Part shown: positions 12 through 62,409 of the stretch, one piece after another | Position numbering within the stretch: position 1 is the first letter of the stretch | How the letters are laid out: every line of letters begins with the position of its first letter | NCBI RefSeq assembly: GCF_040802235.1 | Contig: NC_133166.1 | Span: 113,350,991 to 113,414,990 of the forward strand | DNA from: Manis javanica | Taxonomy: Eukaryota; Chordata; Mammalia; Pholidota; Manidae | Direction: 5' to 3' | Length of the DNA stretch: 64,000 nucleotides | Notes under the pieces: model-generated | What the model was told of the DNA's origin: nothing | Seen by the model: only the letters and a program-made list of their open reading frames with translations | Databases searched by the model: none | Made by a program: the position numbers and the translations under genes

Positions 12-3000
12 CTGCAAGAGTAATATCCAGACGTCTGTGTGGGGAAGCGTGGCGGTGTTTTCCTCAGATCACAGCTATGGCAGGCCGCCCCCACAACAGA
101 ATTCCCATGAACCCTTGGGGCGTGCAGCTGTAGCTGAACCCACATCTGGGCAACCCCCTGGCCAAATCTTCTCCTTTCGGTCATTGACGGCGTACTCCCG
201 GGAGCCTGGGCTGGGTGCAGCCTTAGGTGCCTCTCCCCACTTCCCATGACCCACGAAGTCCATCCATTAAAGGCCCCCAGCCTAGTTCCCTCCATAGGTG
301 CAAACCCAGCCAGGGGTTTCTGCTCTGAAATCCCGACGTGCCCCCTAATGGGCGCAGGCAGGGACCAGGCAACCCTGAGACTATACACATTCACACCACA
401 TGTGCCACACGCGCCACACACACACACACACGGTGCGCTCATACACACCACACAGACTGGAACCACATACAACACTCCCACCACACACATGGCACATTCA
501 CAAAACACACACACACACACACACACACACTCCTGCGTTTACAACAGCGACCCCAGTTATCACCTCTAGTGCACAGAGAGGAGAAGTCCACAGACGTAAT
601 CTCTACACAAGACCTGGCTATGAGCTGCAATAGAGAGAGAGAGGAGTGGCAGGGTCACGGGCGTGGACGGCGGGGGCGCGGCGTGCAGCCCCCTCCATGC
701 CCCCTCACTCACGGGGTCAACGATGTCTTCCAGTCCGCTGTATCCAGTGTCCACTGCAAGCACATGACCCACTGTGCCAGCAATTTCCAGGAGCTGAAAG
801 GGAGAGGAGACAGCCTGGGCCCACAGCCAGGGGTGATGACCCAGAGGTCCCCGTCCCAGGACACAGACACGGAGGGCTACACCCCGGCACCTCCAGCAGC
901 CCCCGCTCAGGGGAGGGAAAACACTTCCACGCTCACCTCTGCTGTGTAGGTCTTACACAACACTTGCTACTCATTCTGAACGGCCACCTTGCACATCTTT
1001 CAACTCCCTGGGCCCAGCCTCAGCGGACAGGCCCCCCCTACTCCCCAGGGACCTCCTGGGGGGTGGAGGCCCATCGTCTGGGCGACCCTGAGAGCGCCGT
1101 CTTTGAAGCTTTCCCCTGCGAGGCTCCCAAGGGACCCCCCTTTCGCTGCTCAGAATTACCTGGTATTTCTGGGAATCTTCCACACCCACGAAATACACAG
1201 TTGCCCCCAACTGCCTGGATTTTTCAGCCTGAGAAAGAGGAAGTCATGGGTATAATAAATTTGGTCCAAATATGTGGACCCAAAGGCTGGTAACAATGGG
1301 CTTAACTCACTTCATCTTTTGTCTCCGCAAAGGATTCTGGTAGGAGTGGTCCACCTGTCAGCGCGATGATGAGGCTGGGGACCCTCTCTCCTGCGGGAGA
1401 GGCAGGGCGTGACTGGGTCAATGAGAGCAACGGCCACCGGCTTCCAGGACCCGAGCACTGCTCCCCATGCCTCACCCTCCTGGGGAGAGGCCACCCCGAC
1501 CTGAGCACCTGCCACCCACATGCCTGGAAGGCTTTGCAGCTTATCATGCAACAAGGAGGGCCTCCAGCCCAGGACCCACTTTGCAGATGAGGAGACTGAG
1601 CCCAGCTTAGGGTTCCTCCTACAGAACTGTCACTTCTCCCAGATGGCACAACCTTAGCCCTGAAAGGCAACGCCAGCAATTTCACAGGACAAGCGCCAGC
1701 CTTCCAGGAGAGCAAAAACAGGAGGGGGCACCCCTACTGTGCGCGACTCCCGCCCGGCCACGCAGGCCCGTTCCAGCTCTGGGCCTCACCCACAGCTCTC
1801 CCGTGGGCACCTGCACACCCAGGCTCAGGGCTCGAGTAAGAGGCAGGTGAGCAGTAGACCCCCTCCCAGGCTCAGTGCCTCTCCCGGGGCCACACAGCTT
1901 CCCTAGACCCTACAGCCAAGGTGAGGATGCTTCTGGGACAGGCACAGTCGCTCACACTGCGGGAGACCCAGAGCAGGAGCCTCAGCCCAAGGGCGGGAGC
2001 TGGAGGGAGAAGGAGTCAGGGCGGAGCGCCTGCTCAGCAGGGGGAAGCGCGGGCTCTCTCCTCACCCTGAGGCCCCGCCGCTCCAGGACCCTCTGGGTCT
2101 CCCCCTCTCTCCTTCCTGCAGCCCGGCTCCAGGGCCAGCGCCCCCCACTTCCTAGGAACCATGGCGTCGTCCGCGTGACCCCTGGCTGTGCTGCGGAACA
2201 TCACGGGGTGGCTTTCAGCCCCACCCCTCAGAGCGGGAGGCTGCCGCTCAGAGAGGGCAAGCAGCTGGTCCCGGCGTCAGCGCCAGAACGCGGCCTGGGC
2301 AGGGCCGCCCCGGCCTCAGGAAGGCCCAGGCCTGGCTCTTTCCCGGGACTCCACCGCCAGGAAGGAGGAAGCAGCTCCCTTACCTGCAGCACGTGTTCTT
2401 TCCATCTGCTCATTCGCCTGCAGCAAAAGGAAGGAAGATGTTGGGGGGGGACAGTGAGACGACCCAGTGATGACCCTCTGCCAACCTCATAAAGCAGAGG
2501 CACATCCCAGAAATCCAGATTCCGTACCCTTTTCAATCCGTGCTGCATATTTATGGCTCCTGAAGGTATGACATTCAACAGATCGACAAGACCAGTGTTT
2601 ATTTTATTTCTGAAAAGAAAAAAATCAGAGCAGGTGGGAGATGGAATGAGGGGTTGCCTCTTACAAGCGGCCCCAGGCTGCCCTTGTCCGTCTGCACGAG
2701 CAGCCCTTCCGGGACGGGTGAGGGCCACGTCAAGCAGCCCTGGCCCGGCCCTCTGCCCCGTGCCTTTGGCATTGGCTGGCCTGGTTCCCACCGTCCCAGT
2801 CCCGTATCCGGTGAGTGGGGTGGGGAGGGCACGCGTCTGTCTAGCCCCATAGGTGTGGCCTGGGCTCTCTGCGCTCAGCTCTGTCTAAGCCGTGCAGAAC
2901 TGGGGACCTCACCCCGGGATACACCCTGACTGGCCCCGGTGAGTACGGGGAGATGCCAAGTGTGATTCCATCACAGTGTGACTGGCAGCACGCCCGCCCC

Positions 3001-6000
3001 CCGGGGGCCCTGGTGAGGGCGCACTCTTCTCCCACCCTTAAGGCAGAGCTTGGGAAGGTCACCGTGGCCCCTCCTGTCCACGGGCCCTGGGCCCCTCAAG
3101 TGCAGGGTCCTCGGGCCGTCTGCTGCTCCTCCCACTCCCAACCATTTTCCTCCATGAGAATCTGAACCTCCCTGCTACTCAGAAGCTCCATCCCCTCCCG
3201 CCTCCCGCCTAGACCCTCCTGGGATGCAGGCCCATGGGGCCTTCCTCCAGCACCCTGCCCCAGCCTGGTGTTCAGGACCCACTCCTGGGCTCCCCTCACC
3301 AGACTTGGGGGGAACACGCTCCCCTCCACTGCAGCACCCACACTTGGGTGATACCATCCCTTCGTCCCTGGTTCTGACTGTCCCCTCTTCCCCAGTGGCC
3401 CGGGGCAGAAAGTGACACACAACCGCAGGTGCCAGGCTGTGTCCCTAGAGGCCCCCACATCTGCTCCACCTGATCTGGGAATCTTCGCAGTCGGCCTGCT
3501 CTAGGGAAGGGGTCGAGCACGGAGGGCTGGGCTCGGAGGGGAGGAGTCTGCCTACCAGCACAGGGTCTGGCCAGGGCCAGTGCAGAGGCCCCAGTGGGGC
3601 CCGGGGGCCCAGGGCTGAAGGTCAGGGTGCGCAGAGAGGGGAGGGCCCAGGACACCGTGCCTGCACACCCGTGTGCTCCTCGGTGCGGCTCAGGGACCCC
3701 CTCTGCTCCCTGGCCCTCCCTGTGGCCTGATCGCTGGGTCTGCTCTAGGGGATCAATGAAACACTTACCTGTCCGAGGTCAGCTGCATATTGACGTGGCC
3801 TTGCGTCGAGTATGTAATGAATGACATGCGCTGTTCAGGGCTTGGGAGGAAACATGGACTTGTGAGCAACTATACACACAGGGTGAAAGTGATGCTGATG
3901 TGCAACAGGCAGGGGGCGCCCCCCAAGTTCCCTGCTCTCCGTTCTGTCTCTTAGTGTGGAGCCCATTTCCTGGACTCCACAAGTTCTCATCACTTTAGTG
4001 AAGGATCATGAGGCCCGGCAGGCGCGCAGCCCTCCTGTCAGAGTGCGGCAGAGCGCCCTGCGGACCCAAAGCCCGGAAGTCTGTTTCCCTCTCTGCCCTC
4101 TCTCTCTCTCTCACTCCACACACACGCGCACAGGGCTGCTGCGTGCACAGGAGACAGGCAGCTACCTGCTTCTTCACGAGGGGCCTCCCTCGCTGGCCGC
4201 CCCTCTCCCCTCCTGACAGATTCTTGGTCCTTTCCCTTCTCCTCCTCCCTGGACGATCTTCCCCACCTCCCTCCCCCTCGCCTCAAAGAAATTATGCTCC
4301 CTCCTCAGCCATTCATATTTCCTAATCTGTGAGGGCCTCCAGGGAAGATGTGCCCCTGAAAACAAGGACAGACCCCCAGGAAGGAGCCACGCAGGGCTGC
4401 AGAGATCTTAGGAAACAAGTGTGATCTGTCCTTCTCTCCTGTTCGGAACACTGCCCTGAGCTTTGCGACCTGAGGCAGGCCCGGGGTCCACTGCATCTAA
4501 ACAGCAAAGTACTCAGAGAGGAAATCGCCCTGCAACACAGAGCTGAAAAGCCGTACTTTTTAAATCTGTTCACCAAATCCCGCACAAAGCTCTGTGTGAA
4601 CATCCAGTTGTGTACACCTTGTGATCTGAAAAAGAAGAAGACGTGAGTCAGAGACGGAGGTGCATGTATCATGTGAGCACGGTTGCTGCCTCTCCTGCCT
4701 TCCACTGGCCCTTAGCAGGCTCCTCCGTGTGTGTGTGTGTGTGCATGCGTGTGTGTGTGTGTGCGTGCGCGCGTGCGTGTGTGTGTGTGTGCGCGTGCGT
4801 GGTGTGTGGTGCGTGTGTGTGGGTGTGTGCTGTGCGTGCGTGTGTGTGTGCGTGTGTGTGCGTGTGTGTGTGTGTGTGTGTTGTGTGCATTTGTAATGTG
4901 TTCTATCTTAAATTTATGTTCAAGCATTTCCTTGATAAATTTAAAAATGAAATTACAGACAAACTTGTGGCATGAAGTGTGAAAAAGACAGACTGGGAAG
5001 CTCTAAGCCTTAGTTTCCACAAAGAAACACTGACCAAACAGAGGCTTAAACTGGAAACAGTATACTTCCACGGAAAACAACAAAGGTGGGCAGAAACCGA
5101 GGGAAAAAGAAAGAATGGACATACAAGACAAGCAGAAGCAAACAATAAGATGATACAGCCAGGCCTTACACACCAAGCATCACTCTAAATGTGTGTGGCA
5201 CCGGGGTGGCTGAGTACATAATAAAACCCAAATATTTGCTGCTTACAAAAGACTCATTCAGCTCTAAAGATATATGTCGGTTAAAAGTGAAGTGATAGAA
5301 GAAGAAATTCCATGCAAGTGGAAATCAGAAGAAATCAGCCATAGTTATATCAGATAAAATAGTCTTCAAGCCAAAAATGGTAACAAGAGCCAGTGAAACA
5401 GGATTCTGAGGTAAATGGTGGAGTAGAGAGAGCCTGAAGTCACCTTCTCCACCAGATCTACACTTACACACAGAGTCCTTTCACCCTGAAGAAGAGTGGA
5501 GGACTGAAGTGACCACCACCTTCTACACAGAGAGGGACAGAAAGATCACGCACACATGGAACCCCAAAGCAGCAGGAGACACAGAGACGCAGGAACCCCA
5601 GGAACCCCAATCCCAGCACAGCAATTTCCCCGCCCGCTGATTAAGGGGCATGCAGGCCACACATCTGGGCCATGTGGGTGGGGGGGCTGAGTCCTCTAGA
5701 AACCACATGGTGGCCTTCAATCCTTTTCAAGAGGAAAGTCCCAGGGAACAAATGCCTGGGGCATTCTTTCTGCCCCAGGGAGTCCGCAGAGAGTCTGTTC
5801 CTTGAATGTGACCGGACAGTCCCTGCTTCCCTCTCTCAGAGCCTGGGGCCCCCTACTGACCCCAGGGACAGCACTGTTCTATGGCAGCTACTAGAGCAGG
5901 TGGGCCACTCACGAGTCTAGGACGAAGTACACGTCGTAAGTGCTCCAGCAGGATTCCCCATCTGCTGGGCTCTCCTGGAGCCTGGAGCTGGGGTCGTGAC

Positions 6001-34037: not shown

Positions 34038-34256
34038 TTATGGGCTGAGACTTTCACAGCTGCTTTCCAGAGCCTCCAGGTTGCAGCAGGTATGAATGGC
34101 ATCATTCCGCTGGTAGCGAATGGGTTGCGCACGCTGGCACCATGAGCAGATTTTGCTGAAGTGGGAGCAATGGACGCTGGGTTGATGGTAGATCCACGTG
34201 CCGCAGGACAACGACTCACAATGGGGCATCATTAGGGGGACGGCAGAATCACACCT
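34038..34256 (-). CDS. ANTXRL: ANTXRL copy B exon 16 (last, cysteine-rich tail)
   Basis: Acceptor CTTCTCCCCAG, then 72 codons and TAA (34,038-34,040). Begins [19 protein letters not shown] and holds nine cysteines. It lacks the actin-coupling tail sequence and long proline runs of ANTXR1/2. L1 sequence begins within 30 bp past the stop. Confidence 0.8.
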   Translation of the reverse strand, partial: RCDSAVPLMMPHCESLSCGTWIYHQPSVHCSHFSKICSWCQRAQPIRYQRNDAIHTCCNLEALESSCESLSP

Positions 34257-37200
34257 CTGGGGAGAAGAGGAGAGAGAGAAAATGTCACTGACAAGCCACT
34301 GGAATTGGGGGCTGAAGGCTGTGATTTCCCTCACTCCTGGGGTTGCCAGGTTCCTTGTCTTCTCAAGCCCACCCTTGTCCTAATGGCCCGAGTTCCACGG
34401 ATACACACCCAGGTCTGCCTAGCGGCACCGTGTAGCGTGCTAACATCAGGCTTCCGAGAACCTGTCTGCATGCAGCCTCAGAGCGCAGTCTGCCCATATC
34501 CTGTCCTGGGCGCCTCTGTCTCTGGCCGGAAGTCCACACTCACCTTCCTGTGTGCCTACTGCCTGGCCGGGCCCTTGGCCTCCCTGCTCAGGCCTCCTCG
34601 AGCGTCTCCTCTCCCCTGGGCACCTGGCTCTGCCCTATCCTACTCCAGGCCTCACACAACCACCCTCCCCGAGAAGCAGCTCCTGGCAGCTGCCACCTTC
34701 AGCTGTGCTTCCCCTCTGCCCGGGCCTCCAGCCCCGGGGCCCAGCTGGCTTGCTAGACTCCTCACCACCACGCCCTGCCCTTGTCAGCAGCCTGGCCTGC
34801 GTGCACGCAAAGCCTGTGACCCTGCCCTGCATGGGGCAGGCACTGTGGCAGAATGAACCCCAGCAAGGGGCTTCTATCTCTGGCAGGTGTGTTTTGGGCT
34901 CCCCGGGGCCCCACACTGCCTGCAGGGAGAGCAGGACGGCTCTCATCTGCCCCTTGACACTTAGAAGGACTTAATGGATCTGTCAAAACTAATGTAGAAT
35001 CAGGGAGACCGGGGCAGAGCCTGACAGACACCACAGGGCTCTTTCTTTCTCAACACCTGCAACCGGGAGCCCATCCACCCCTGTCATCTCTGTGCCCTGC
35101 AGGACGGGGTTCTCCTCACTGCATGGGGCCCTGGTTCTGGGGTGGGGGTTACTTCAGGCCCCTCCTCCAGGTGCCCGTCTCCCTTCCTCAGTGGGTTCCC
35201 GGGAACCTGCAGTCCTCTCCCTCACTCTGCTGAGGAGACGTCTGCAGGAGCAGCAGGTGACACTCTGCTTTTTGGGGAGTGTTCATGGCAGGAAGAACTT
35301 GGCACAAAACTTCCATGGTTTTTCCTGACCTGGGCGATCTCTGCCGTCCCGTGTGTTCTCACCAATCCACCCAAGGGCCGAGGAAGCCCGAGCTTGGCTG
35401 GAGTGGACGACAAGCTCTGCCAGCACCGCGGACGGGGGCACCTGTCGGGCAGCCACCCACATCTAGAAGCCTGGGCCTGTGATAAGGGGAGACCCGGGGA
35501 CGGGGACCAGCTGGGGGTGGGGAATATGGGCCCTCACGCCTTTTCTCTGTCCCAGGCCTCTAGGGCCCAGATGATGTCCTTACTGTGATGCCGGGTGATC
35601 AAAGCCCAGCACCCATAACCTCACCACCACAGAAGCCAGGCCTTCTGGGCCCGTGTCTGTGGGGCAGGAGCCGCCTGCCCCTGGCTGCCCTCGGCCCAGC
35701 CTGGGGCATCAGCACCTGTCTAGGGCCCTTCTCACCTCTGGTACCTTCATCTTCTCTTTATCAGGATTCCTACAGCACGATACAATGACCGAGGGGCACT
35801 TCTGGGCCAGTGCGGCTGGGCTCTAGAAGGAGAAAACAGTGTCTGCTTCTTGGCGGGCAGCTCCTGGGGTAGGGACACTGTGGCTGTTGCCCTGCACCTG
35901 TCACTTCCTGGCCACTCCGCCAGTGTTTGCTGGGAGAACTCAAGGACCAAGGGGCAGCACCGTGTCCCTTAGGAGAGAGCCGCCCTAGTGCAAACCCGGC
36001 AAACTCTTAGTTTGCAAATAAGGCTGCTCCCCAAAAGGGCAAGAAATTCTATCACCTCGCCTTCGTTCCCGGGGCAGCCCTCCTTAGAGAAGCCTGGCCC
36101 TGGGACTCTGGGACTCAGAGGAGGGGACCAGGTCTGAAACCGAGCCCCTTTACCATAACCCACCTGCGTCCTATGGAAGACCCTCCTACACACAGGCGTT
36201 TGAACAAAAGCCCCTTGTCTCAGAGGGAATCACAGCAGTTGCTGAAACAGGCCCCTGAGTTGCTCATTCAGTGACAGAGGCCCTCGGTCAGGCTCTGAAG
36301 GGAGCACGAGAAGGGTGTCCTCTGTGTGACACTGGGAGCCCCACATCTTATAGGGGGCCCACCATGGCCCTGTCACCCTCTTCTGCCAGCTCTCCCTGCC
36401 CAGGTCATGAGGGCTGGGGGTGGGGGAGACTGCCCTAGGCTGCGGGGGGGCTCACTGTGAAGGCCAGTGTGCCCGCAGGCTCTGACACCATCACAACCAA
36501 AGCAAACACGACCTACCTTGTGTGGTGCTGGTGGTGGCTTCTGGGAAATAGAAAGATGGAGTGATAAACACAGGTTGGAAGGCTCTGGCTCAGCCTTGTA
36601 CACAGGAGGGGGCCTGCTCTGCAGCAGAGGGACAGAGCAGGGCCTTGGGTGTCCACCTGAGTGCTCGCTGCGTGTGGGTCTGTGGTCGGCTGGCTCCACC
36701 TGCCTGCGCTGAGCCCACCCTTCCCTGTGGGTCCCCGGGGAGACATTCAGCCTAGGATGCCTGGTGCTGCTGCAGGCATCTAACGGGGGGTTTTCATCAG
36801 CACCCTATACGTCTTATGAAGACAAGAGATCCTCCCCTTCCCTTCCTGCTCCTCCCCCCTTCCTCCGCACACCCTGAACCGCCCCTGTGCCCGGCCCTCA
36901 GGGAAGTCCACCTGGCACCCTGGCTTCCTGTCCTCAGGCCCCCAGTGTGCAGACCTCAGGCCTTCCGGCGTCTTGCTGGGGCTGCGCCCTCACACCCCCG
37001 GGGTCCTTCCTCCCATAGTGCTCCCGGGCCTGCCCTTGGGAGCCCAGCTAGCCGGGCCTCTGCGCCCGCCCTACCCGGGGCCCGCCTCTGCCCTCTGCTG
37101 TTGCCCTGGTTAGGCAGCACAATGGCCACATGCCATGAAGGTGACATTTTCCCCCAGTATCTCAGGGACCAAGGCCCATCGAGACACCAGTCCTGGAGCT

Positions 37201-40200
37201 GCCATGGCAGGAATGGGGGCACTTCACATCTGTCCCCTGCCCAGCCTGGCGCCCAGCCCTGACAACTGGGCCCTGAGTAGTGACTGGGAAGGAAGGACAG
37301 GGCTCCAGAGATGGGCAGAGGCCATGTGTGTTTTGAAAGGTACAGCTGACCCAGAGGAGAGCATTCGGGGGGCACCTGGCCCTCCCTTTGGGGCCATCGC
37401 TGCCCAGGCAGGGTCTGTGCTTTCCTCCAATCCACAGCAGAGGCCCCTCCCTGGCCTTTGTCCCTGTGGGTCCTTCAGAAGCCTGAGTCGGGCCTGGGGT
37501 CACTTCTCCTCAGGGGTAGGGCCGCTCACAGGTCCCCTCTCTGGGCCAAGCCTGAGGCACAAAGCCCCTCAGAGGCCAGGCTGTGTGCCCAGGAATGGGA
37601 GGGTGGCTCTGAGCCCCCATGTGCGCAGGTGATGACCTCAGAACTGACGGGAACCTTCCCACAGGTGGAATCCCGGGGCAGCCAGGAGTCCCCATACTTT
37701 GGGGGACGGCTGGGGAGTGCCTGGGCCACAGGGCTGTGTAGTCAGGGGTCACTCACACTTTTACTGCGCCATCGCCAGATACAGCAGCAGCACAGCACCA
37801 GGAAAAAGGGCAGCGTCAGGAGGGGCACAGCCCAGTAGAGAGAGTGTAAACTGAGGAACACCCCTCTGGGAGGCCCTCCATCTGGCTGAGTATCCTCTTT
37901 GTCTTCCGGCCCACCATCTGGAAGGGCTCTTTGTTGGGCAGGCGGTGGTGTGGCACCCAGTAAGGCAGGTGGGGTCCCCTCCTGAGGAAAGCACACGTGT
38001 TAAGTCCTCGTGCACCTGGGCAGCTTCCTGTGGTGCCCATCACTTGGCATCCCACCCCACACCTCCAAATCCACCTTTCCCCCTTACACTCAGATTACCC
38101 CACTCTGAGAGGCCACAGCAGGACTAGGAGCCAGGGGCTGGGCCCTGAGGGCCCTGAAGCACCCTGGGCCACAGACCCTGCTCAGAGGCTCTGACCCAGA
38201 ACCCTGCCAGGGTGTCCGGCATCCTCCGTGCTGGGCCACAGGCAGTGCCCACTGCATGCCCGGGCTGACAGCACAGGGGCCTGGGGAGGTGCCCACCAGT
38301 GAAGGCACACATGGGGTGCAGGGGGGCTCCTGGGGCCGGGATGAAGGGGGTCTGCAGCATCAGGGCAGCACCCTGGGTCTATCTCCCCATAGCCTGGCCC
38401 TCCCTGGCCCCTACCCAGAGCTGCTCAGCCCCTCTGAGCTGCACTTCCACATCCGGAGGAGCGAGTGAGGGGACACCTGTGAGGTTTAGGGTTCAAACCC
38501 CATCCTGGTACAGGGCAGGCCCGTAAGGAATGGGGGCTCCTGTCCTGTTCTTCTTCATAGTCACGGAGAAGCCCACTGTATCTGTGCAGTCAGGGGCTGC
38601 AAGGCCTGAACCGGTCACCCAAGTGCGATGCTTCAGGTTAGGGGGAGAGGGACAGGGCGACGTGGACTCGTGCCCAGGAGGCAGGGCCGAGGAGAGGGGA
38701 GGCCAGGCCAGGGCGGGGGGGAAGCCACTGTGCTGGGAGTAGACACCGGTTGGCTCCTGAGTTCTTCTCCCAATGTGCCTGTTGAAGGGCGCTTGTCACC
38801 AGGTGGGACCCCAATGGGCAAGTGGGTCAGTTCCGTCTGCTGCCGGGAGCAGACATCCAGGGATAAGTATAAACAGACATGCCCAGGAGTGTCAGTGCTG
38901 TCGGAAGCCAGGCGTGGGAGCAGGGGCTGTACCCGCAGCGGGGCCCGAGCACCAGTGCAGTGGAATTCACCTCCACTATGCAGGGCCGGAGGGGGTCCCA
39001 GCCTCCAGGGCTCCTGGGTCTGAGACCCCAGTTTTGAGGGCCTGGACTCTAGCTCCCTGCACACAGCCTCCAGCCTCCACCCCCCACCTAAGCCAGACCC
39101 AGAGGGAGCTCTGAACTCCCCACCAGGAGACCCAGGCCAGGGAGGCGGCAAGGTGGGAGTCAAGGGGCCGCTCTCAGCACTGTCCCGGAGTCTGCTTGGA
39201 GCTCCAAGTGCAGGGTGCCATGTGCCTTCAGGGACCCTGGGCTTGCAACAGGGCAGAGGAGCTGCACGGCCGCAGACACCTTCACAGGGGTACCCCGAGG
39301 GCACTTCTGAAGCCTGAGCGGGGGCACCGCTCCCCAGGGAAAGGTTCAGGGGCTGCCGTGGCTGTGAGGTGCTGCCCAGGTGCCCAGCTGCCCAAGCGAC
39401 TTGCTGGGCCTGCCCTGGACACTGTTCCTGCCTTTGGCTTCCCAGTGTGTCTCCCTGTCCGGGGATGCACAGAGTACAGTCCCAGGGGGCGGCAGTAGTC
39501 TCACCCTGGACGTCGCACAGGTCGTCCTGCTGATCTCTAAATCCTTCTTGATGAAGGTGAGGCCATTATCCAGGCTGATATCGATGAGGACGGCCCTAGA
39601 GCACAGAAAGGGCAGACGGTGACCCGCAGCCCAGACGGCACCGTGCGTGCGCTTGGCTCAACCTGCACCCGACCGTGGTCCTCGTTGTAACAGCTCTGAT
39701 CAGCGGGTATTCAGGACCCTGAGTAGGGGGCAGCACGGGGCAGGAGGGCCCACCCCAGGACAGATGAGGCCCCCTGTGCAATGAAGGCTGAGCAGGCTGT
39801 GAGGAGCCCTGCAGGGCCCAGATGCCCTCGTGGCCACGGGCCAAGTGGCCAGGCGGGCTGTTTGGTGTCACCTCCCAAACTCTTTTCCATGACAGAGCAT
39901 GCTGGCTTGGCCCTGAAAGGTGCCTGGGCCACAGGTACCGTCCCTGGGGCCCGGCACCTCCTGCATCCTGCCCTCCTTGAGAGAGCCTGGGTGACAGGGG
40001 ATCACAGCCCCTCAGGGGACCACCCGCACAGGTGGGTGCAGAGGAAGCCCTGAGCCCTCCCAGAACTGGTGTGAGCAGCTCCTCCAGAGGACGCATCACG
40101 CACGCTGGTCCCGCCATAGTGCCCATAACTGACCACATTCCCTGAGCTTTACGCTTACCGGCCCCGATTATTCATCTTCAGTCCTGGGCAGGTAACGGAG

Positions 40201-43200
40201 GTGTCTTCCACCGATAAAGCCTTCATTCCTGGAAGAAAGTGACACGCAAATAATGTCAATGGACATGTCCCCACATCCCCGACGCCCCTCCTGTGGCCCT
40301 TGGCAAGCAGAGCTCGCCCCTTGGCGGATGTCGGCTTCCGTTCTCTGCCTGCCTGGGAGCACCTGCCTCACACCAAGTGCCGTGCTGCTGACCCGACTGT
40401 CATTTCAGCTGCGACCTTCTGAACATTCTTACCCTTCGTTGGAGCTCAGAATGAAAACTCAATGCTAAGTATGGTCAGGGGAAAGGATTGGTGTCTGGGT
40501 GGGGAAAGGCTAGGATTAAATGGGCAAAAATACCCAAAGCGGTGCAAACTGACTTTCCCGTTGGATGTGCCCAGTCCGGAGAGGAGGAGGATGGGACGGC
40601 AGCCCAGCACGCAGAGGGGCCTGGACAGGCATGAGTGACTGGAAAGGAGTTTTCAAACCAGTATTACATGCATGGGATGAACTCCCATTTATTAGTGTCC
40701 TCTCTAATTTCTCTTAAGAGTGTCCTTCACTTTCTTGGTTAGGTTCATTTCTAGGTAGTTTATTCTTTTTGATGCATTTGTGAATGGAATTGTTTTCCTG
40801 ATTTCTCTTTCTGCTAGTTCATCATTAGGGTATAGGAATGCAACAGATTTCTGTGTACTAATTCTGTATCCTGAGAATTGGCTGAATTCAGATATTAGTT
40901 CCAGTAGTTTTGGAATGGAGCCTTTAGGGTTTTTTATGGCATCATGTTTCAATCTCAAGTGAACACACCATCCTGGCAGACCTGGCAGAGACTCAGAGCC
41001 CTGGGGCTGCGTCGACTTCCCTCCCATAGACTCATGGACTCGAGTCCTTGCCTCCCAAGGGAAGGGAGAGCCCAGGAAAGGGAGGGCGTGCATCTCTTAG
41101 GGCGCACCCCACCCCACACCCCGCCAGGGCTACAGGACAGGCTGCTCCCGGGGGTATGATGGTGCTGGGGATCGATTCAGTCCTGGGCACGAGCGGCAGG
41201 TGCCCAAGCACCCAGCCAGTGACCCCTTCCACTGTCCATGCTGCTGGTTTTTGGGGTGTGCACAGTGAATGGCCAGCATGGGCCCTGGTTTGCTGGGGGA
41301 CAGCTGTCACCGGGGGACAGGAGGGGCTGCTTACGGATGATTTCCTTCCCAGTGCGAAACTGACAGACAACGTCATCGTTGCGGACGCCCTGAAAACCTT
41401 TTCCAATAACCTTGACGGTCTTTTTCCCTGCAAGAGTAATATCCAGACATCTGTGTGGGGAAGCGTGGCGGTGTTTTCCTCAGATCACAGCTATGGCAGG
41501 CCGCCCCCACAACAGAATTCCCATGAACCCTTGGGGCGTGCAGCTGTAGCTGAACCCACATCTGGGCAACCCCCTGGCCAAATCTTCTCCTTTCGGTCAT
41601 TGACGGCGTACTCCCGGGAGCCTGGGCTGGGTGCAGCCTTAGGTGCCTCTCCCCACTTCCCATGACCCATGAAGTCCATCCATTAAAGGCCCCCAGCCTA
41701 GTTCCCTCCATAGGTGCAAACCCAGCCAGGGGTTTCTGCTCTGAAATCCCGACGTGCCCCCTAATGGGCGCAGGCAGGGACCAGGCAACCCTGAGATTAT
41801 ACACATTCATACCACATGTGCCACACACGCACACACACACACACATGCACACGGTGCGCTCATACACACCACACAGACTGGAACCACATACAACACTCCC
41901 ACCACACACATGGCACATTCACAAAACACACACACACACACTCCTGCGTTTACAACAGCGACCCCAGTTATCACCTCTAGTGCAGAGAGAGGAGAAGTCC
42001 ACAGACGTAATCTCTACACAAGACCTGGCTATGAGCTGCAGTAGAGAGAGAGAGGAGTGGCAGGGTCACGGGTGTGGACGGCGGGGGCACGGCGTGCAGC
42101 CCCCTCCATCCCCCTCACTCACGGGGTCAATGATGTCTTCCAGTCCGCTGTATCCGGTGTCCACTGCAAGCACATGACCCACTGTGCCAGCAATTTCCAG
42201 GAGCTGAAAGGGAGAGGAGACAGCCTGGGCCCACAGCCAGGGGTGATGACCCAGAGGTCCCCATCCCAGGACACAGACACGGAGGGCTACACCCTGGCAC
42301 CTCCAGCAGCCCACCCTCAGGGGAGGGAAAACCCTTCCACCCTCACCTCTGCTGTGCAGGTCTTACACAACACTTGCTACTCATTCTGAACGGCCACCTT
42401 GCACATCTTTCAACTCCCTGGGCCCAGCCTAAGCGGACAGCCCCCCCTCCTACTCCCCAGGGACCTCCTGGGGGGTGGAGGCCCATCGTCTGGGCGACCC
42501 TGAGAGCGCCGTCTTTGAAGCTTTCCCCTGCGAGGCTCCCAAGGGACCCCTCTTTCGCTGCTCAGAATTACCTGGTATTTCTGGGAATCTTGCACACCCA
42601 CGAAATACAGAGTTGCCCCCAACTGCCTGGATTTTTCAGCCTGAGAAAGAGGAAGTGTTGGGTATAATAAATTTGGTCCAAATATGTGGACCCAAAGGCT
42701 GGTAACAATGGGCTTAACTCACTTCAACTTTTGTCTCCGCAAAGGATTCTGGTAGGAGTGGTCCACCTGTCAGCGCGATGATGAGGCTGGGGACCCTCTC
42801 TCCTGCGGGAGAGGCAGGGCGTGACTGGGTCAATGAGAGCAACGGCCACCGGCTTCCAGGACCCGAGCACTGCTCCCCATGCCTCACCCTCCTGGGGAGA
42901 GGCCACCCCGACCTGAGCACCTGCCACCACATGCCTGGAAGGCTTTGCAGCTTATCATGCAACAAGGAGGGCCTCCAGCCCAGGACCCACTTTGCAGATG
43001 AGGAGACTGAGCCCAGCTTAGGGTTCCTCCTACAGAACTGTCACTTCTCCCAGATGGCACAACCTTAGCCCTGAAAGGCAACGCCAGCAATTTCACAGGA
43101 CAAGCACCAGCCTTCCAGAGGAGCAAAAGCAGGAGGGGGCACCCCTACTGTGCACGACTCCCGCCCGGCCACGCAGGCCCGTTCCAGCTCTGGGCCTCAC

Positions 43201-46200
43201 CCACAGCTCTCCCGCGGGCACCTGCACACCCAGGCTCAGGGCTCGAGTAAGAGGCAGGTGAGCAGTAGACCCCCTCCCAGGCTCAGTGCCTCTCCCGGGG
43301 CCACACAGCTTCCCTAGACCCTACAGCCAAGGTGAGGATGCTTCTGGGACAGGCACAGTCGCTCACACTGCGGGAGACCCAGAGCAGGAGCCTCAGCCCA
43401 AGGGCGGGAGCTGGAGGGAGAAGGAGTCAGGGCGGAGCGCCTGCTCAGCAGGGGGAAGCGCGGGCTCCCTCCTCACCCTGAGGCCCCGCCGCTCCAGGAC
43501 CCTCTGGGTCTCCCCCTCTCTCCTTCCTGCAGCCCGGCTCCAGGGCCAGCGCCCCCCACTTCCTAGGAACCATGGCGTCGTCCGCGGGACCCCTGGCTGT
43601 GCTGCGGAACATCACGGGGTGGCTTTCAGCCCCACCCCTCAGAGCGGGAGGCTGCCGCTCAGAGAGGGCAAGCAGCTGGTCCCGGCGTCAGCGCCAGGAC
43701 GCGGCCTGGGCAGGGCCGCCCCGGCCTCAGGAAGGCCCAGGCCTGGCTCTTTCCCGGGACTCCACCGCCAGGAAGGAGGAAGCAGCTCCCTTACCTGCAG
43801 CACGTGTTCTTTCCATCTGCTCATTCGCCTGCAGCAAAAGGAAGGAAGATGTTGGGGGGGGGACAGTGAGACGACCCAGTGATGACCCTCTGCCAACCTC
43901 ATAAAGCAGAGGCACATCCCAGAAATCCAGATTCCGTACCCTTTTCAATCCGTGCTGCATATTTATGGCTCCTGAAGGTATGACATTCAACAGATCGACA
44001 AGACCAGTGTTTATTTTATTTCTGAAAAGAAAAAAATCAGAGCAGGTGGGAGATGGAATGAGGGGTTGCCTCTTACAAGCGGCCCCAGGCTGTCCTTGTC
44101 CGTCTGCACGAGCAGCCCTTCCGGGACGGGTGAGGGCCACGTCAAGCAGCCCTGGCCCGGCCCTCTGCCCCGTGCCTTTGGCATTGGCTGGCCTGGTTCC
44201 CACCGTCCCAGTCCCGTATCCGGTGAGTGGGGTGGGGAGGGCATGCGTCTGTCTAGCCCCATAGGTGTGGCCTGGGCTCTCTGCGCTCAGCTCTGTCTAA
44301 GCCGTGCAGAACTGGGGACCTCACCCCGGGATACACCCTGACTGCCCCCGGTGAGTATGGGGAGATGCCAAGTGTGATTCCATCACAGTGTGACTGGCAG
44401 CACGCCCGCCCCCCGGGGGCCCTGGTGAGGGCGCACTCTTCTCCCACCCTTAAGGCTAGGTTGGGAAGGTCACCGTGGCCCCTCCTGTCCACGGGCCCTG
44501 GGCCCCTCCAGTGCAGGGTCCTCGGGCCTTCTGCTGCTCCTCCCACTCCCAACCATTTTCCTCCATGAGAATCTGAACCTCCCTGCTACTCAGAAGCTCC
44601 ATCCCCTCCCGCCTCCCGCCTAGACCCTCCTGGGATGCAGGCCCACGGGGCCTTCCTCCAGCACCCTGCCCCAGCCTGGTGTTCAGGACCCACTCCTGGG
44701 CTCCCCTCACCAGACTCGGGGGGAACACGCTCCCCTCCACTGCAGCACCCACACTTGGGTGATACCATCCCTTCGTCCCTGGTTCTGACTGTCCCCTCTT
44801 CCCCAGTGGCCCGGGGCAGAAAGTGACACACAACCGCAGGTGCCAGGCTGTGTCCCTAGAGGCCCCCACATCTGCTCCACCTGATCTGGGAATCTTCGCA
44901 GTCGGCCTGCTCTAGGGAAAGGGTTGAGCATGGAGGGCTGGACTCGGAGGGGAGGAGTCTGCCTACCAGCACAGGGTCCGGCCAGGGCCAGTGCACAGGC
45001 TGCAGTGGGGCCCGGGGGGCCAGGGCTGTAGGTGGGGGTGGGCAGAGAGGGGAGGGCCCAGGACACCGTGCCTGCACACCCGTGTGCTCCTCGGTGCGGC
45101 TCAGGGACCCCCTCTGCTCCCTGGCCCTCCCTGTGGCCTGATCGCTGGGTCTGCTCTAGGGGATCAATGAAACACTTACCTGTCCGAGGTCAGCTGCATA
45201 TTGACGTGGCCTTGCGTCGAGTATGTAATGAATGACATGCGCTGTTCAGGGCTTGGGAGGAAACATGGACTTGTGAGCAACTATACACACAGGGTGAAAG
45301 TGATGCTGGTGTGCAACAGGCAGGGGGCGCCCCCCAAGTTCCCTGCTCTCCGTTCTGTCTCTTAGTGTGGAGCCCATTTCCTGGACTCCACAAGTTCTCA
45401 TCACTTTAGTGAAGGATCATGAGGCCCGGCAGGCGCGCAGCCCTCCTGTCAGAGTGCGGCAGAGCGCCCTGCGGACCCAAAGCCCGGAAGTCTGTTTCCC
45501 TCTCTGCCTCTCTCTCTCTCTCACTCACACACACGCGCACAGGGCTGCTGCGTGCACAGGAGACAGGCAGCTACCTGCTCTTCACGAGGGCCTCCCTCGC
45601 TGGCCGCCCCTCTCCCCTCCTGACAGATTCTTGGTCCTTTCCCTTCTCCTCCTCCCTGGACGATCTTCCCCACCTCCCTCCCCCTCGCCTCAAAGAAATT
45701 ATGCTCCCTCCTCAGCCATTCATATTTCCTAATCTGTGAGGGCCTCCAGGGAAGATGTGCCCCTGAAAACAAGGACAGACCCCCAGGAAGGAGCCAAGCA
45801 GGGCTGCAGAGATTTTAGGAAACAAGTGTGATCTGTCCTTCTCTCCTGTTCGGAACAGTGACCTGAGCTTTGCGACCTGAGGCAGGCCCGGGTCCACTGC
45901 ATCTAAACAGCAAAGTACTCAGAGAGGAAATCGCCCTGCAACACAGAGCTGAAAAGCCGTACTTTTTAAATCTGTTCACCAAATCCCGCACAAAGCTCTG
46001 TGTGAACATCCAGTTGTGTACACCTTGTGATCTGAAAAAGAAGAAGACGTGAGTCAGAGACGGAGGTGCATGTATCATGTGAGCACGGTTGCTGCCTTCC
46101 CTGCCTTCCACTGGCCCTTAGCAGGCTCCTCCGTGTGTGTGTGTGTGTGTGCGTGCGTGTGTGTGTGTGTGTGCGTGTGTGTGTGTGTGCGCGTGCGTGT

Positions 46201-47502
46201 GTGTGTGTGTGTGCGTGCGTGTGTGTGTGTGTGTGCGTGCGTGCGTGTGTGTGTGTGCGTGTGTGTGCGTGTATGTGTGTGTGTGTGTGTTGTGTGCATT
46301 TGTAATGTGTTCTATCTTAAATTTATGTTCAAGCATTTCCTTGATAAATTTAAAAATGAAATTACAGACAAACTAGTGGCATGAAGTGTGAAAAAGACAG
46401 ACTGGGAAGCTCTAAGCCTTAGTTTCCACAAAGAAACACTGACCAAACAGAGGTTTAAACTGGAAACAGTATACTTCCACGGAAAACAACAAAGGTAGGC
46501 AGAAACCGAGGGAAAAAGAAAGAATGGACATACAAGACAAGCAGAAGCAAACAATAAGATGATACAGCCAGGCCTTACACACCAAGCATCACTCTAAATG
46601 TGTGTGGCACCGGGTGGCTGAGTACATAATAAAACCCAAATATTTGCTGCTTACAAAAGACTCATTCAGCTCTAAAGATATATGTCGGTTAAAAGTGAAG
46701 TGATAGAAGAAGAAATTCCATGCAAGTGGAAATCAGAAGAAATCAGCCATAGTTATATCAGATAAAATAGTCTTCAAGCCAAAAATGGTAACAAGAGCCA
46801 GTGAAACAGGATTCTGGGTAAATGGTGGAGTAGAGAGAGCCTGAAGTCACCTTCTCCACCAGATCTACACTTACACACAGAGTCTTTCACCCTGAAGAAG
46901 AGTGGAGACTGAAGTGACCACCACCTTCTACACAGAGAGGGACAGAAAGATCACGCACACATGGAACCCCAAAGCAGCAGGAGACACAGAGACGCAGGAA
47001 CCCCAGGAACCCCAATCCCAGCACAGCAATTTCCCCGCCTGCTGATTAAGGGGCATGCAGGCCACAGATCTGGGCCATGTGGTTGGAGGGACTGAGTCCT
47101 CTAGAAACCACATGGTGGCCTTCAATCCTTTTCAAGAGGAAAGTCCCAGGGAACAAATGCCTGGGGCATTCTTTCTGCCCCAGGGAGTCCGCAGAGAGTC
47201 TGTTCCTTGAATGTGACCGGACAGTCCCTGCTTCCCTCTCTCAGAGCCTGGGGCCCCCTACTGACCCCAGGGACAGCACTGTTCTATGGCAGCGACTAGA
47301 GCAGGTGGGCCACTCACGAGTCTAGGACGAAGTACACGTCGTAAGTGCTCCAGCAGGATTCCCCAGCTGCTGGGCTCTCCTGGAGCCTGGAGCTGGGGTC
47401 GTGACCTTGGTCCTGGGTGGGGTGGCGGAGGGTGCTCCTGGTGGTCGGGAGCGGAGATGGCGGCAGCAGCAGCAGGAAGACCACCAGCACGGGGCCCCGC
47501 AT
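34038..47502 (-). CDS. ANTXRL: ANTXRL copy B, complete 16-exon gene (503 aa), anthrax toxin receptor-like
   Basis: Predicted single-pass type I cell-surface protein of the ANTXR family. Coding exons, 5' to 3' on the minus strand: 47318-47502, 45963-46031, 45180-45251, 43940-44021, 43795-43828, 42723-42802, 42572-42640, 42123-42203, 41975-42035, 41335-41427, 40159-40228, 39505-39595, 37757-37981, 36517-36540, 35745-35801, 34038-34256. All have AG/GT borders, and lengths sum to 1,512 nt with no phase conflict, internal stop or frameshift. Order: signal peptide about 1-20; VWA domain about 55-230; ANTXR Ig-like domain about 231-329; Pro/Asp-rich stalk 330-368; membrane segment about 370-398; short cytoplasmic tail 399-503 with nine cysteines in the last exon. 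Odd: MIDAS ligands are replaced (DxSxS reads DSSQG, the conserved Thr is Ile128, the TDG motif is TGG at 159-161). The fold and exon plan are those of ANTXR1/2; the tail resembles ANTXRL rather than ANTXR1/2. Transcription was not tested. Confidence 0.92.
35745..35801 (-). CDS. ANTXRL: ANTXRL copy B exon 15
   Basis: 57 nt, acceptor TGGCCCAG, donor GTACCA. Encodes [19 protein letters not shown], the counterpart of the CPTVI/WPTVD segment that starts the ANTXR cytoplasmic domain. Confidence 0.82.
36517..36540 (-). CDS. ANTXRL: ANTXRL copy B exon 14 (proline micro-exon)
   Basis: 24 nt, acceptor TTTCCCAG, donor GTAGGT. Encodes KPPPAPHK, a short version of the proline-rich cytoplasmic linker of ANTXR proteins. 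Supported by strong splice sites and phase. Confidence 0.75.
37757..37981 (-). CDS. ANTXRL: ANTXRL copy B exon 13 (stalk and membrane segment)
   Basis: 225 nt, 75 codons, phase 0 at both ends. The acceptor TTTCCTCAG at 37,982 was chosen because the closer AG at 37,866 throws the membrane segment out of frame. The first 38 residues form a Pro/Gly/Asp-rich linker. Then comes a hydrophobic stretch ([20 protein letters not shown]), followed by basic WRSKS, as expected for a type I anchor with a positive inner flank. Confidence 0.85.
39505..39595 (-). CDS. ANTXRL: ANTXRL copy B exon 12
   Basis: 91 nt, acceptor GCTCTAG, donor GTGAGA. Encodes [20 protein letters not shown] then [10 protein letters not shown]. 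The SL-NG-TF and TTC motifs end the Ig-like domain in this family. Confidence 0.92.
40159..40228 (-). CDS. ANTXRL: ANTXRL copy B exon 11
   Basis: 70 nt, acceptor CTTCCAG, donor GTAAGC. Encodes [20 protein letters not shown] then NRG. The CPG triplet is the family's conserved CP-P segment of the Ig-like domain. Confidence 0.92.
40695..40960 (-). mobile_element. L1 ORF2 fragment in ANTXRL intron 10
   Basis: Minus-strand reading [20 protein letters not shown] then [15 protein letters not shown] matches the RT region just after FADD in the full-length L1 (28,320-28,540). Frame mostly open, flanks unique. Same sense as ANTXRL. Confidence 0.92.
41335..41427 (-). CDS. ANTXRL: ANTXRL copy B exon 10 (Ig-like domain)
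   Basis: 93 nt, acceptor CTTGCAG, donor GTAAGC. Encodes [20 protein letters not shown] then [10 protein letters not shown]. The G-GF motif and the cysteine before FR match the ANTXR Ig-like domain. A diverged duplicate lies at 48,724-48,817. Confidence 0.92.
41822..41942 (+). repeat. (CA)n tracts in intron 9, unit B
   Basis: Counterpart of 407-532, with the second run shorter than in unit A. Confidence 0.9.
41975..42035 (-). CDS. ANTXRL: ANTXRL copy B exon 9
   Basis: One silent change (Leu codon CTC for CTG) against copy A. Opens the Ig-like domain with Cys230 and Cys242. Confidence 0.88.
42123..42203 (-). CDS. ANTXRL: ANTXRL copy B exon 8
   Basis: One replacement (Ile222) and one silent change (Thr213) against copy A. 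Confidence 0.9.
42572..42640 (-). CDS. ANTXRL: ANTXRL copy B exon 7
   Basis: Two replacements against copy A (Leu185, Gln191). The LGA-LYFVGV strand and splice sites are intact. Confidence 0.92.
42723..42802 (-). CDS. ANTXRL: ANTXRL copy B exon 6
   Basis: As copy A, with Val173 for Asp. The TGG in place of TDG is shared. Confidence 0.92.
43795..43828 (-). CDS. ANTXRL: ANTXRL copy B exon 5
   Basis: 34-nt micro-exon identical to copy A; keeps exons 4 and 6 in phase. Confidence 0.87.
43940..44021 (-). CDS. ANTXRL: ANTXRL copy B exon 4
   Basis: Identical to copy A exon 4, including Ile128 at the MIDAS Thr position. Confidence 0.9.
45180..45251 (-). CDS. ANTXRL: ANTXRL copy B exon 3
   Basis: Identical to copy A exon 3; splice sites preserved. 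Confidence 0.9.
45963..46031 (-). CDS. ANTXRL: ANTXRL copy B exon 2
   Basis: Identical to copy A exon 2, including Gly65 in the DxSxS motif. Confidence 0.88.
46131..46290 (+). repeat. Compound (TG)n/(CG)n tract in intron 1, unit B
   Basis: Counterpart of 4,725-4,882 with a rearranged TG/CG order, as expected for a fast-mutating tract. Confidence 0.92.
46535..46805 (+). mobile_element. Old L1 ORF2 fragment, unit B
   Basis: Counterpart of 5,130-5,400. Confidence 0.75.
47318..47502 (-). CDS. ANTXRL: ANTXRL copy B exon 1
   Basis: As copy A exon 1 with three replacements (Val5, His27, Ala46) and no silent change. Leader [13 protein letters not shown]; ends at Asp61 with a GTGAGT donor. Confidence 0.9.
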
Positions 47503-47739
47503 CCTGGGGCCGCTGTTCTTGCCTCCGCCCAGTCCCTGGGGGCCCAGGCGGGCCCCGTAAACTGCAGGCCACCTCAGGCCAACACCTCCTCTGCTTCCTC
47601 GCGGGCTCAGGGTCCTCGGCACTCCCGACCTCAGCGCTACTCACGCTCTGATCAGTATACCTTGCACCTGCCAGCAGCCACCTGATACCTGCCCTGTGGG
47701 TCCAAGTAGCAAGTGGTGGGCTGTGGGGTGATGGCCCCG

Positions 47740-47774
47740 CTACTTATGCACCTTCACCCCGCCCTGCTGACGTA
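47740..47774 (-). promoter_or_regulatory. Putative ANTXRL core promoter, copy B
   Basis: Same three elements conserved without change at offset 41,405. Confidence 0.35.
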
Positions 47775-48432
47775 GGTCCATTATGATGGACAATAGGTTG
47801 CCCTGGTGACCTTGTGAACTGCAGCTCTGCCCGGTGCTCTCCCTGTGGGCATCCTCAGGCAGGAGTTTGAAGGGGCAGTAAGATGAGGCCTCCATTTGTC
47901 CCTTATCCCAAACCCTCCCAGGGAGTCTACAATTTCAAGGAAACCCGGCCCTTTGGTAAACTGACAGAGGGCAGCTGAGGGGGCCTCCACACAGACATCA
48001 CTGAGTGTGGGGAGGTGGAGAGAAGATTGCTCTAAGTTTATTTGTGGGGACACTGAAGTCACCCAAGGGATAGAAGGATCTAGAAGAAGGCTGTGAAAGC
48101 AGGCCAGTGTCCTTTGTGAATGCGGGACATTCCAGTTATCTGCTCTGTGTATTGAACCATCGCAGACCTAGGGACATAAAGCAGGAAAATTTCATATGCG
48201 CACAGGTTCTGTGGATTAGAAATTCAGAGATGTCTGAGCGGGCACGGGTTGACTTTCCTCCATGGAAAACCCACTTGCTCTTTCATGTAAATTCTGGAAT
48301 CATATCATACATTCTCCACTCTCCTAAACCTCTCTTAGTATTTTAGCAAAACAAAGTTACATATGTAGATACATTTGGAGGGATTTGAATCTGCTGTCTG
48401 GACCACTCCCACCAGTGAACATCAGGCACCCG

Positions 48433-49063
48433 CCCTGCTTCCCTCCTTCGGGGCAAAACCAGCCACGGGTTTCTGATCTGAAATGCCCAGGTGCCCCCTA
48501 CTGGGTGCAGGCAGGGGCGCACAGAGGGGGACGCAGCTCTGAGGGCCACCCTGCCCCAATCCCAGCGTCAGCTGCAGTGAAGGCTACTCCCTGGTGCCCG
48601 GTGGTGCTGGGGACGGATTAGTTCCTGGGTGTCACTGGCAGGTGTCCAGGCTGGGCTCACTGTGGGGAGGCAGCCCGATGCGGGACGGTTGTCACTGGAG
48701 GAAAGGAGGGCCTACTTATCGGGAATTTCTCGTTACCAAATCTGAATTGACAAATAACTTCCTCCCTGTTGTCTACATCTTGGAAGCCTTTTCCGATAAC
48801 CTTCGATTTCTCGTTAACTGCAACAGTAACATCCATATGTCTGTGCGAGGAAGGGCTGAAGTGTTTTCCTCAGATCACAACTATGGCAGGCGGCCCCCAA
48901 AACAGAACTCCCAGGAACTTGTGGGGATGTGCCTGCATCTGAACCAGCCCCCGGCCTACTTCCCTCCATAGGTGCAAACCCAGCCAGGGGTTTCTGCTCT
49001 GAAATCCCAAGGTGCCCGCTAATGAGTGCAGGCAGGGACCAGGCAACCCCGACATAACTGAGA
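48433..49063 (-). repeat. Internal duplicate of the intron 9 - exon 10 - intron 10 block, unit B
   Basis: Copy of 7,030-7,660 at offset about 41,403. Confidence 0.7.
48724..48817 (-). pseudogene. Decayed duplicate of ANTXRL exon 10, unit B
   Basis: Identical to 7,321-7,414, with the same broken donor, so the decay predates the 41-kb duplication. Confidence 0.8.
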
Positions 49064-52000: not shown

Positions 52001-52110
52001 CCCCAGTTTCAAATGTGGAAATCCTTAGCAAATTAACATGCCATGCAAGTTACAAGAGCATACACTATTTTTTCATTAAGGAAAACCAAACAACCTGTCT
52101 GGCGCACTAA

Positions 52111-52675
52111 TGTTGGGGGGACGTTGTGTATTTTCCTCGGTTCTTGTCCCTGGCGCGACAAAGACATGAAGGGCAGAGACACAGTAGTGGAGCAGAGCAC
52201 AGGTTTTATTTAAAGTTCCTTAAAGAGAGAAAAAGTGCAGCAGGCAACCTCAGCGAGGAGAGGCGCCTTGAAAGGTTGGAGAAAGTTTAAGATTAAAAGG
52301 TTACACACTTAGAAAGTGTGGGCGACCTCAGAGAGAGGAGTGCCCTGAAAGGTTGGGGGTTCCCCCTTTTAAGGATTTTTCAGGAATGTGATCATGGGCT
52401 GAGGGTGCAGACCTGTTAAGCGGTCCCTGAATATTTAAAATTAACTTAATACAGGAAGTTTACTGCTCTGATTTCTCCTGAGATAACTGGCCTCTGGGTC
52501 TGAGAGCCTATCAAACAAGACCACCTGCCCAGCCCCCCAGGTGGGCTGAGTGCTTGTCTGCTGAAGAGGACGTTAAGAATCTTCCTCACTTCCTGCCTTT
52601 TCCTATGTTGTTTATTGCTGGGCCTGCGTCCCAAATTCCTCCCATCTCCTCCCATCTCGCATACCACCAGGCACA
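52111..52675 (-). mobile_element. Solo LTR-like element, unit B
   Basis: Counterpart of 10,707-11,271; no difference noticed. Confidence 0.55.
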
Positions 52676-52697
52676 GTGTGGCTGGACGGTAAGTGTA

Positions 52698-52699
<2 letters not shown>

Positions 52700-52746
<47 letters not shown>

Positions 52747-52772
52747 CACACACACACACACACACACACACA
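52700..52772 (+). repeat. (TG)n(AG)n(AC)n palindromic microsatellite, unit B
   Basis: Same structure with two more AG dinucleotides than unit A. Confidence 0.93.
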
Positions 52773-52849
52773 TTTCACATATTGTTAAATGAATGAGATG
52801 AATACATTCCCAAAGTCTAATGAGCCCTGGACCGGCCCAAAACTTCCGG

Positions 52850-53200
52850 AGAAAACGCCAGTGTTCGGGCCGCTCCGTACTTCAAGCTGCTGCTGCTGGG
52901 AGGCGGCGAGGTCTGCGTGGGAGCAGGCAGCGGGGTCCCCGGGAAGGGCGGCCCTCTGCGGGTGGTGCGCGGAGTCTGAGGCCGGAGGCGGGGGGCGGCC
53001 GGCGGCGCAGGGTCCCCGGCGGTGTCAGCCCGCGGAGGTGCGGGCCCCAGCGGCGGGGGCAGGCGGGCGAACTGGGGATCCGCGGAGCCTGGCGCTGATG
53101 GCACCCGCTGGGGGCACGGAGTCGTCGGTAGCGGCCGCCACCGCCCTCCCAGGCATTGCTCACAGTTTAAACCGGGCTTAGCCCCGGGGGGGCGCTGTGC
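52850..53200. promoter_or_regulatory. CpG island 1, unit B (shortened)
   Basis: Matches 11,440-11,738. The next 276 bp (11,739-12,014) are absent, with the join at 53,149/53,150 reading CCCTCCCAGGCATTG. Confidence 0.6.
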
Positions 53201-62390: not shown

Positions 62391-62409
62391 ATTTTTGAAC
62401 TTACAAAAT

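What the first reader, a model, noticed from the sequence alone, without database searches (positions are those of the whole stretch)
1311..4625. ANTXRL VWA domain has lost three of five MIDAS metal ligands
In the assembled protein, DxSxS reads D61-S-S-Q-G65 (last Ser is Gly), the conserved loop-2 Thr is Ile128, and TDG is T159-G160-G161 (Asp replaced). In ANTXR1/2 these side chains hold the divalent cation that contacts anthrax protective antigen and collagen-type ligands. The rest of the fold, the cysteines and every splice phase are kept in 16 exons, so this is not simple pseudogene decay. Both copies share the changes, so they predate the duplication. Inference: a receptor-like protein with a metal-independent or lost ligand function.
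Basis: partly seen in the sequence, partly recalled or inferred. Interest (0 to 1): 0.75.

Follow-up and report, generated by a model that had tools for sequence, protein, structure and literature searches.

The report
Pangolin receptor family without metal site
A pangolin gene related to the anthrax toxin receptors, one of a large pangolin-only family, has lost the metal-holding site that its relatives use to grip partners, while the rest of the protein is kept.

Summary
The window is Malayan pangolin (Manis javanica) or a very close relative: the complete minus-strand copy, 34038-47502 (16 exons, 513 aa, no stop), matches M. javanica protein P0001 at 503 of 505 residues. A second copy, 564-6097, runs off the left edge. 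Both read D61-S-S63-Q-G65, I128 and T159-G160-G161, so three of five MIDAS ligands are gone.

The copies belong to a pangolin ANTXRL family (30 of 40 database hits, two Manis species). The Asp of TDG is Gly in 30 of 30 pangolin rows; the Thr is Ile or Leu in 27 of 27 readable rows. Only Ser65 to Gly is special to the window-like subgroup. Of 71 readable rows of other placental ANTXRL, 51 keep the full site; a second laurasiatherian lineage and a mole-rat also lost the Asp.

The predicted VWA-Ig fold is intact, and in the one cross-species pair compared the VWA is the best kept part, so a metal-independent binding domain is likelier than decay. But the two young copies diverge at a near-neutral rate, and no ligand, expression or metal data exist here. 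Human ANTXRL is reported spermatid-specific; a sperm-surface role is my inference.

The parts
34038..47502 (-). Complete ANTXRL copy (copy 2): 16 exons at 47318-47502, 45963-46031, 45180-45251, 43940-44021, 43795-43828, 42723-42802, 42572-42640, 42123-42203, 41975-42035, 41335-41427, 40159-40228, 39505-39595, 37757-37981, 36517-36540, 35736-35822, 34038-34256; 513 aa
   Evidence: GT-AG sites, phases, open frame; P0001 identical at 503 of 505 aligned residues
564..6097 (-). Second ANTXRL copy (copy 1), exons 1-9: 5913-6097, 4557-4625, 3769-3840, 2528-2609, 2384-2417, 1311-1390, 1160-1228, 713-793, 564-624; runs off the window
1353..1355 (-). Copy 1 codon for Gly160 (Asp of TDG in intact relatives); copy 2 equivalent 42765-42767
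2552..2554 (-). Copy 1 codon for Ile128 (MIDAS Thr in intact relatives); copy 2 equivalent 43964-43966
4616..4618 (-). Copy 1 codon for Gly65 (last Ser of DxSxS in intact relatives); copy 2 equivalent 46022-46024
42018..47361 (-). Copy 2 region coding the VWA domain, residues about 48-230 (exons 1 to 9)
   Evidence: Pfam PF00092 over residues 55-221; model of P0001
39514..42026 (-). Copy 2 region coding the Anth_Ig domain, residues 228-326 (exons 9-12)
   Evidence: Pfam PF05587, E 5.6e-23
37757..37981 (-). Copy 2 exon 13: linker and transmembrane helix
   Evidence: helix 375-403 in the model of P0001
1..23700 (.). Tandem segmental duplication unit 1 (pairs with 41417-64000, 98.8-99.3% identical), which carries copy 1
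41417..64000 (.). Tandem segmental duplication unit 2, as far as the window shows

Best explanation
The gene is one member of a pangolin-specific, multi-copy ANTXRL family. Every readable pangolin member has a dismantled MIDAS in its VWA domain: D160 is Gly and T128 is Ile or Leu (shown), so the loss most simply dates from their common ancestor. The window-like subgroup also lost Ser65 (shown). The protein is still a signal peptide-VWA-Ig-TM membrane protein with a short cysteine-rich tail (sequence and model). Most likely mechanism (inferred): the VWA domain no longer grips an acidic residue of a ligand through Mg2+, but binds by side-chain contacts on its surface, as VWF A3 does, in a rapidly duplicating set of receptors that probably sit on sperm or spermatids, because human ANTXRL is spermatid-specific.
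Against: The two young copies differ by 7 nonsynonymous and 2 synonymous changes, pN 0.0126 and pS 0.0114, which is neutral-like (P 0.63) and unlikely under omega 0.2 (P 0.02). Four of the seven fall in the VWA. Among paralogues the N-terminal 47 residues (0.141) are even more uniform than the VWA, so gene conversion may be keeping paralogues alike. The clustering of changes at the MIDAS is not significant (3 of 7 changed conserved sites, p 0.095). The two model blocks under 90 are 61-70 and 121-130 (86 and 88), which hold MIDAS loops. No ligand, expression or metal data. The sperm role is carried over from human.
Confidence: 0.5

Rival explanations
1. Relaxed constraint: the family, or at least the window copies, has lost ligand function and drifts; open frames persist only because the copies are young or homogenised by gene conversion.
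For: Neutral-like ratio between the copies. Copy divergence of 1.38% in introns gives about 3.5 My with the rate in PMC9848057 (passage). Long stem of 0.72. Short or variable tails in several predicted paralogues. N-terminal segment unusually uniform among pangolin paralogues, 0.141 against 0.489 in intact orthologues.
Against: VWA better kept than the rest in the cross-species pair compared. Cysteines nearly invariant. Many full-length predicted paralogues in two species.
Confidence: 0.3
2. Weakened but not absent metal site: D61 and S63 remain and water or backbone atoms complete a low-affinity site, so the receptor is still partly metal-dependent.
For: D61 is Asp in 22 of 22 and S63 Ser in 25 of 25 readable pangolin rows. 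T118A of ANTXR2 still binds its ligand, while D50A does not (PMC1762376, passages).
Against: In the window gene two of the three direct ligands (S54 and T118 equivalents) and the second acidic residue are gone together; Ile128 puts a hydrophobic side chain at the site.
Confidence: 0.17
3. The Asp loss is not pangolin-made but inherited from an older laurasiatherian ANTXRL duplicate with TAG/TTG in place of TDG.
For: A separate clade of 19 rows (rhino, horse, cattle, goat, whales, cats, bats and others) lacks the Asp where readable. Holding pangolins with that clade is not rejected: AU p 0.299 and 0.108 in a smaller set with more columns, the badger row P0053 left out because it switched sides between the two trees.
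Against: Both free trees put pangolins apart from it; replacing letters differ (Gly against mostly Ala/Thr).
Confidence: 0.3
4. The two window copies are one gene assembled twice (unmerged haplotypes).
For: 98.8-99.3% identity over about 23 kb; not verified in reads.
Against: Indels and 1.38% intron divergence; D173, V185 and E191 of copy 1 differ from copy 2 and from the five other pangolin rows inspected. It does not touch the MIDAS finding.
Confidence: 0.15

Closest known systems
ANTXRL of other placental mammals (human, horse P0031, cat, cattle, whales)
   Same: VWA + Anth_Ig + TM; one clade in the tree; a similar cysteine-rich tail in horse P0031 by eye
   Different: Full MIDAS in 51 of 71 readable placental rows, Ser allowed for Thr, pangolins excluded; no comparable run of paralogues seen in these searches
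Second laurasiatherian ANTXRL lineage (rhino P0033/P0039, horse P0068/P0079, cattle P0082, bats P0069/P0102 and others)
   Same: Asp of TDG lost; Thr often lost too
   Different: Ala or Thr in place of Asp as a rule; Thr kept in 11 of the 24 non-pangolin rows without Asp; separate clade in both trees
ANTXR1 (TEM8) and ANTXR2 (CMG2)
   Different: Intact MIDAS with Mg2+; cytosolic Ant_C domain (PF05586) in most ANTXR1 hits, not found here
VWF A3 and collagen VI alpha3 N5 VWA domains
   Same: VWA domains without a conserved MIDAS; VWF A3 still binds its ligand (PMC3919171, passages)
   Different: Secreted matrix or plasma proteins, 14-19% identity in the structural alignment, unrelated loss

Membership tests
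ANTXRL | VWA domain followed by Anth_Ig domain | tested here: met
   PF00092 64.5 bits, PF05587 81.7 bits, both above cut-off
ANTXRL | Groups with mammalian ANTXRL rather than ANTXR1 | tested here: met
   Placental ANTXRL branch with support 100/100, stem 0.66; ANTXR2 rows were not in the tree
ANTXRL | Single-pass transmembrane segment and short tail without Ant_C | tested here: met
   Helix 375-403 in the model of P0001; no PF05586
MIDAS-type (metal-dependent) VWA receptors | DxSxS, Thr and TDG ligands present | tested here: not met
   DSSQG, I128, TGG
MIDAS-type (metal-dependent) VWA receptors | Bound divalent metal | not testable with these tools
   needs purified protein
Anthrax toxin receptors in the functional sense | Binds protective antigen | not tested
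   step referred
Processed or decayed pseudogene | Stops, frameshifts, broken splice sites or no introns | tested here: not met
   16 exons, GT-AG sites, open frame; copy 1 tested for exons 1-9 only

The most novel reading that the evidence does not exclude
Pangolins carry a large, fast-turning-over family of ANTXRL sperm-surface receptors that switched as a whole from metal-dependent to metal-independent binding, with a hydrophobic residue (Ile/Leu128) and a polar or basic residue at 64 (Gln, His or Arg) filling the vacated cation pocket; similar switches happened independently in other mammals, with the TDG Asp going first.
Probability: 0.25. Interest if true: 0.7.

Novelty: new variant of a known kind. 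Interest (0 to 1): 0.52.

Why it matters
ANTXRL has little literature (49 papers hold the name; I saw titles and abstract openings of 40). A family-wide loss of the MIDAS in one mammalian order, with intact orthologues in neighbouring orders and further losses elsewhere, gives a natural experiment on how an integrin-like VWA domain gives up its metal. I did not find the expansion in print: 0 papers hold both 'pangolin' and 'anthrax toxin receptor'; the pangolin genome paper PMC9848057 has no hit for ANTXR or anthrax in its main text (supplements not read); the 8 of 34 papers listed do not hold ANTXRL.

Tried and rejected
Cryptic exons restoring the site: none seen with ten proteins against the whole window at E 0.01 (horse ANTXRL missed even the real exon 2, so exon 2 rests on pangolin queries). 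Enrichment of pangolin changes at MIDAS loops among 57 conserved VWA sites: 3 of 7, p 0.095, not claimed. Unusual variability of the MIDAS face in pangolins: top loops 0.224 against other loops 0.207; in intact orthologues 0.261 and 0.347; a mild relative shift without a test, not claimed. Grouping pangolins with the second MIDAS-poor lineage: neither supported nor rejected. Neighbouring annexin gene (fused to ANTXRL in P0060, Bos mutus): no match of that part in the window. Rfam: 0 matches. Codon-based dN/dS on the family branch could not be run, as no pangolin DNA other than the window was at hand; only the two copies were compared. Literature on ANTXRL and MIDAS: of the 8 listed papers none holds ANTXRL (1,117 papers held two of the four terms, so this search says little). 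First two exon assemblies had a frame error at exon 3 and were replaced.

Full report
What was checked. The gene lies on the minus strand. From splice sites and phase I rebuilt a complete copy, 47502 to 34038, with 16 exons and 513 residues, and a partial copy, 6097 to 564, with exons 1-9, cut by the window edge. The complete copy matches Manis javanica protein P0001 (NCBI name: anthrax toxin receptor-like) at 503 of 505 aligned residues. So the window is Malayan pangolin, or a very close relative. The three claimed changes are present in both copies and sit in columns where intact relatives carry Ser, Thr and Asp.

What the residues do. In ANTXR2 the five ligands are D50, S52, S54, T118 and D148; D50A abolishes binding of the known ligand while T118A weakens it (PMC1762376, passages). 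In ANTXR1, S52, S54 and T118 contact Mg2+ directly and D50, D150 and E152 through water (PMC2887854, passages). The window protein keeps the D50 and S52 equivalents (D61, S63) and lacks the other three of the five. Loss of a normal MIDAS is therefore a safe inference; complete loss of metal binding is not measured.

A pangolin family. Searching with the window protein gave 40 hits, 30 of them pangolin, at 51-98% identity, from M. javanica and M. pentadactyla; the largest contigs named differ (119 and 71 Mb in M. javanica, 131 and 80 Mb in M. pentadactyla). A profile search gave 58 hits, 31 pangolin. Hits are clusters at 90% identity and include isoforms and partial models, so they are not a gene count. 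Both searches scored only the roughly 8,000 candidates that share most words. In the alignment of the window copies with 149 proteins, 7 rows with locally misjoined models were dropped before counting, leaving 142. Among 30 pangolin rows column 160 is Gly in 30; column 128 is Ile in 22, Leu in 5, unread in 3; column 65 is Ser in 19, Gly in 3, Cys in 3, unread in 5. The three Gly65 rows are P0001 and the Chinese pangolin rows P0002 and P0021. So the Asp and Thr losses are seen throughout the family, and the Ser65 change is special to the window-like group. No pangolin row with an intact site was seen or 36 (one search listed 120 of 139 hits); the one row outside the alignment, P0150, reads TGE.

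Other mammals. Of 71 placental ANTXRL rows outside pangolins that are readable at all five columns, 51 are intact, Ser being allowed for Thr; of 25 readable ANTXR1 and non-placental rows, 25 are intact. All 82 non-pangolin rows with Asp160 and a readable column 128 have Thr (77) or Ser (5) there. Of 24 without Asp, 11 keep Thr and 13 have Arg, Ala, Ile or Leu. The pattern suggests that the Asp goes first. Parsimony on the 109-row tree gives 3 changes for the Asp column and 7 for the Thr column; by their places in the tree I read the three as pangolins, a second laurasiatherian lineage, and the mole-rat Fukomys, itself on a very long branch. The pangolin clade itself is solid (100/100, stem 0.72), but its place among laurasiatherian lineages is not: joining it with the second MIDAS-poor lineage is not rejected (AU p 0.299, 0.108). 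So two or three independent losses fit.

Mechanism. Shown: ligand loss, kept fold (model), kept membrane architecture, family expansion. Inferred: binding without metal, for which VWF A3 is a precedent (PMC3919171, passage), and a role on sperm, from the statement that human ANTXRL is testis-specific and restricted to spermatids (PMC9834233, passages). The neighbouring residue 64, Gly in 46 of 46 comparison rows, is Arg 14, His 8 or Gln 3 in the 25 readable pangolin rows and Asp in 9 of 11 readable rows of the other MIDAS-poor lineage, which hints at local rebuilding of the site, untested. Mice lacking ANTXR1 and ANTXR2 resist high doses of the toxin tested (PMC3564063, abstract), so ANTXRL is not known to serve as such a receptor even where its site is intact.

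Novelty. Loss of MIDAS in VWA domains is known in general; here it is a new variant, in a family whose pangolin expansion I did not find in print within the searches named. For one search, 49 papers hold ANTXRL and 40 were listed; I saw titles and abstract openings only. For one search, 10 of 11 papers were listed.

Noticed in passing
23727-30012: A LINE-1 lies between the two ANTXRL copies: ORF1 24985-26001 (339 aa; L1 RBD and dsRBD Pfam matches) and ORF2 26146-30012 (1289 codons open; endonuclease and reverse transcriptase), preceded by 3.8 copies of a 208-bp tandem unit at 23727-24518. Both frames open, so possibly a young element.
   Followed up: partly
7326-7400 and 48729-48803 (minus): An exon-10-like ANTXRL relic upstream of exon 1 in each unit; the surrounding 270 bp is 72% identical to the real exon 10 region, so probably an older partial duplication.
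   Followed up: partly
1-23700 and 41417-64000: About 23-kb tandem segmental duplication, 98.8-99.3% identical, broken by indels.
   Followed up: partly
pangolin proteins P0007-P0015, C-terminal part: Predicted cytoplasmic tails of pangolin ANTXRL paralogues differ strongly in length and sequence while the ectodomains stay alike; gene-model error not excluded.
   Followed up: no
window protein residues 1-47 (exon 1): The N-terminal segment is the most uniform part among pangolin paralogues (0.141) but very variable among intact orthologues (0.489): gene conversion or new constraint.
   Followed up: no
P0123 (Fukomys damarensis): A mole-rat ANTXRL on a very long branch also lost the Thr and the Asp of the MIDAS.
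   Followed up: no
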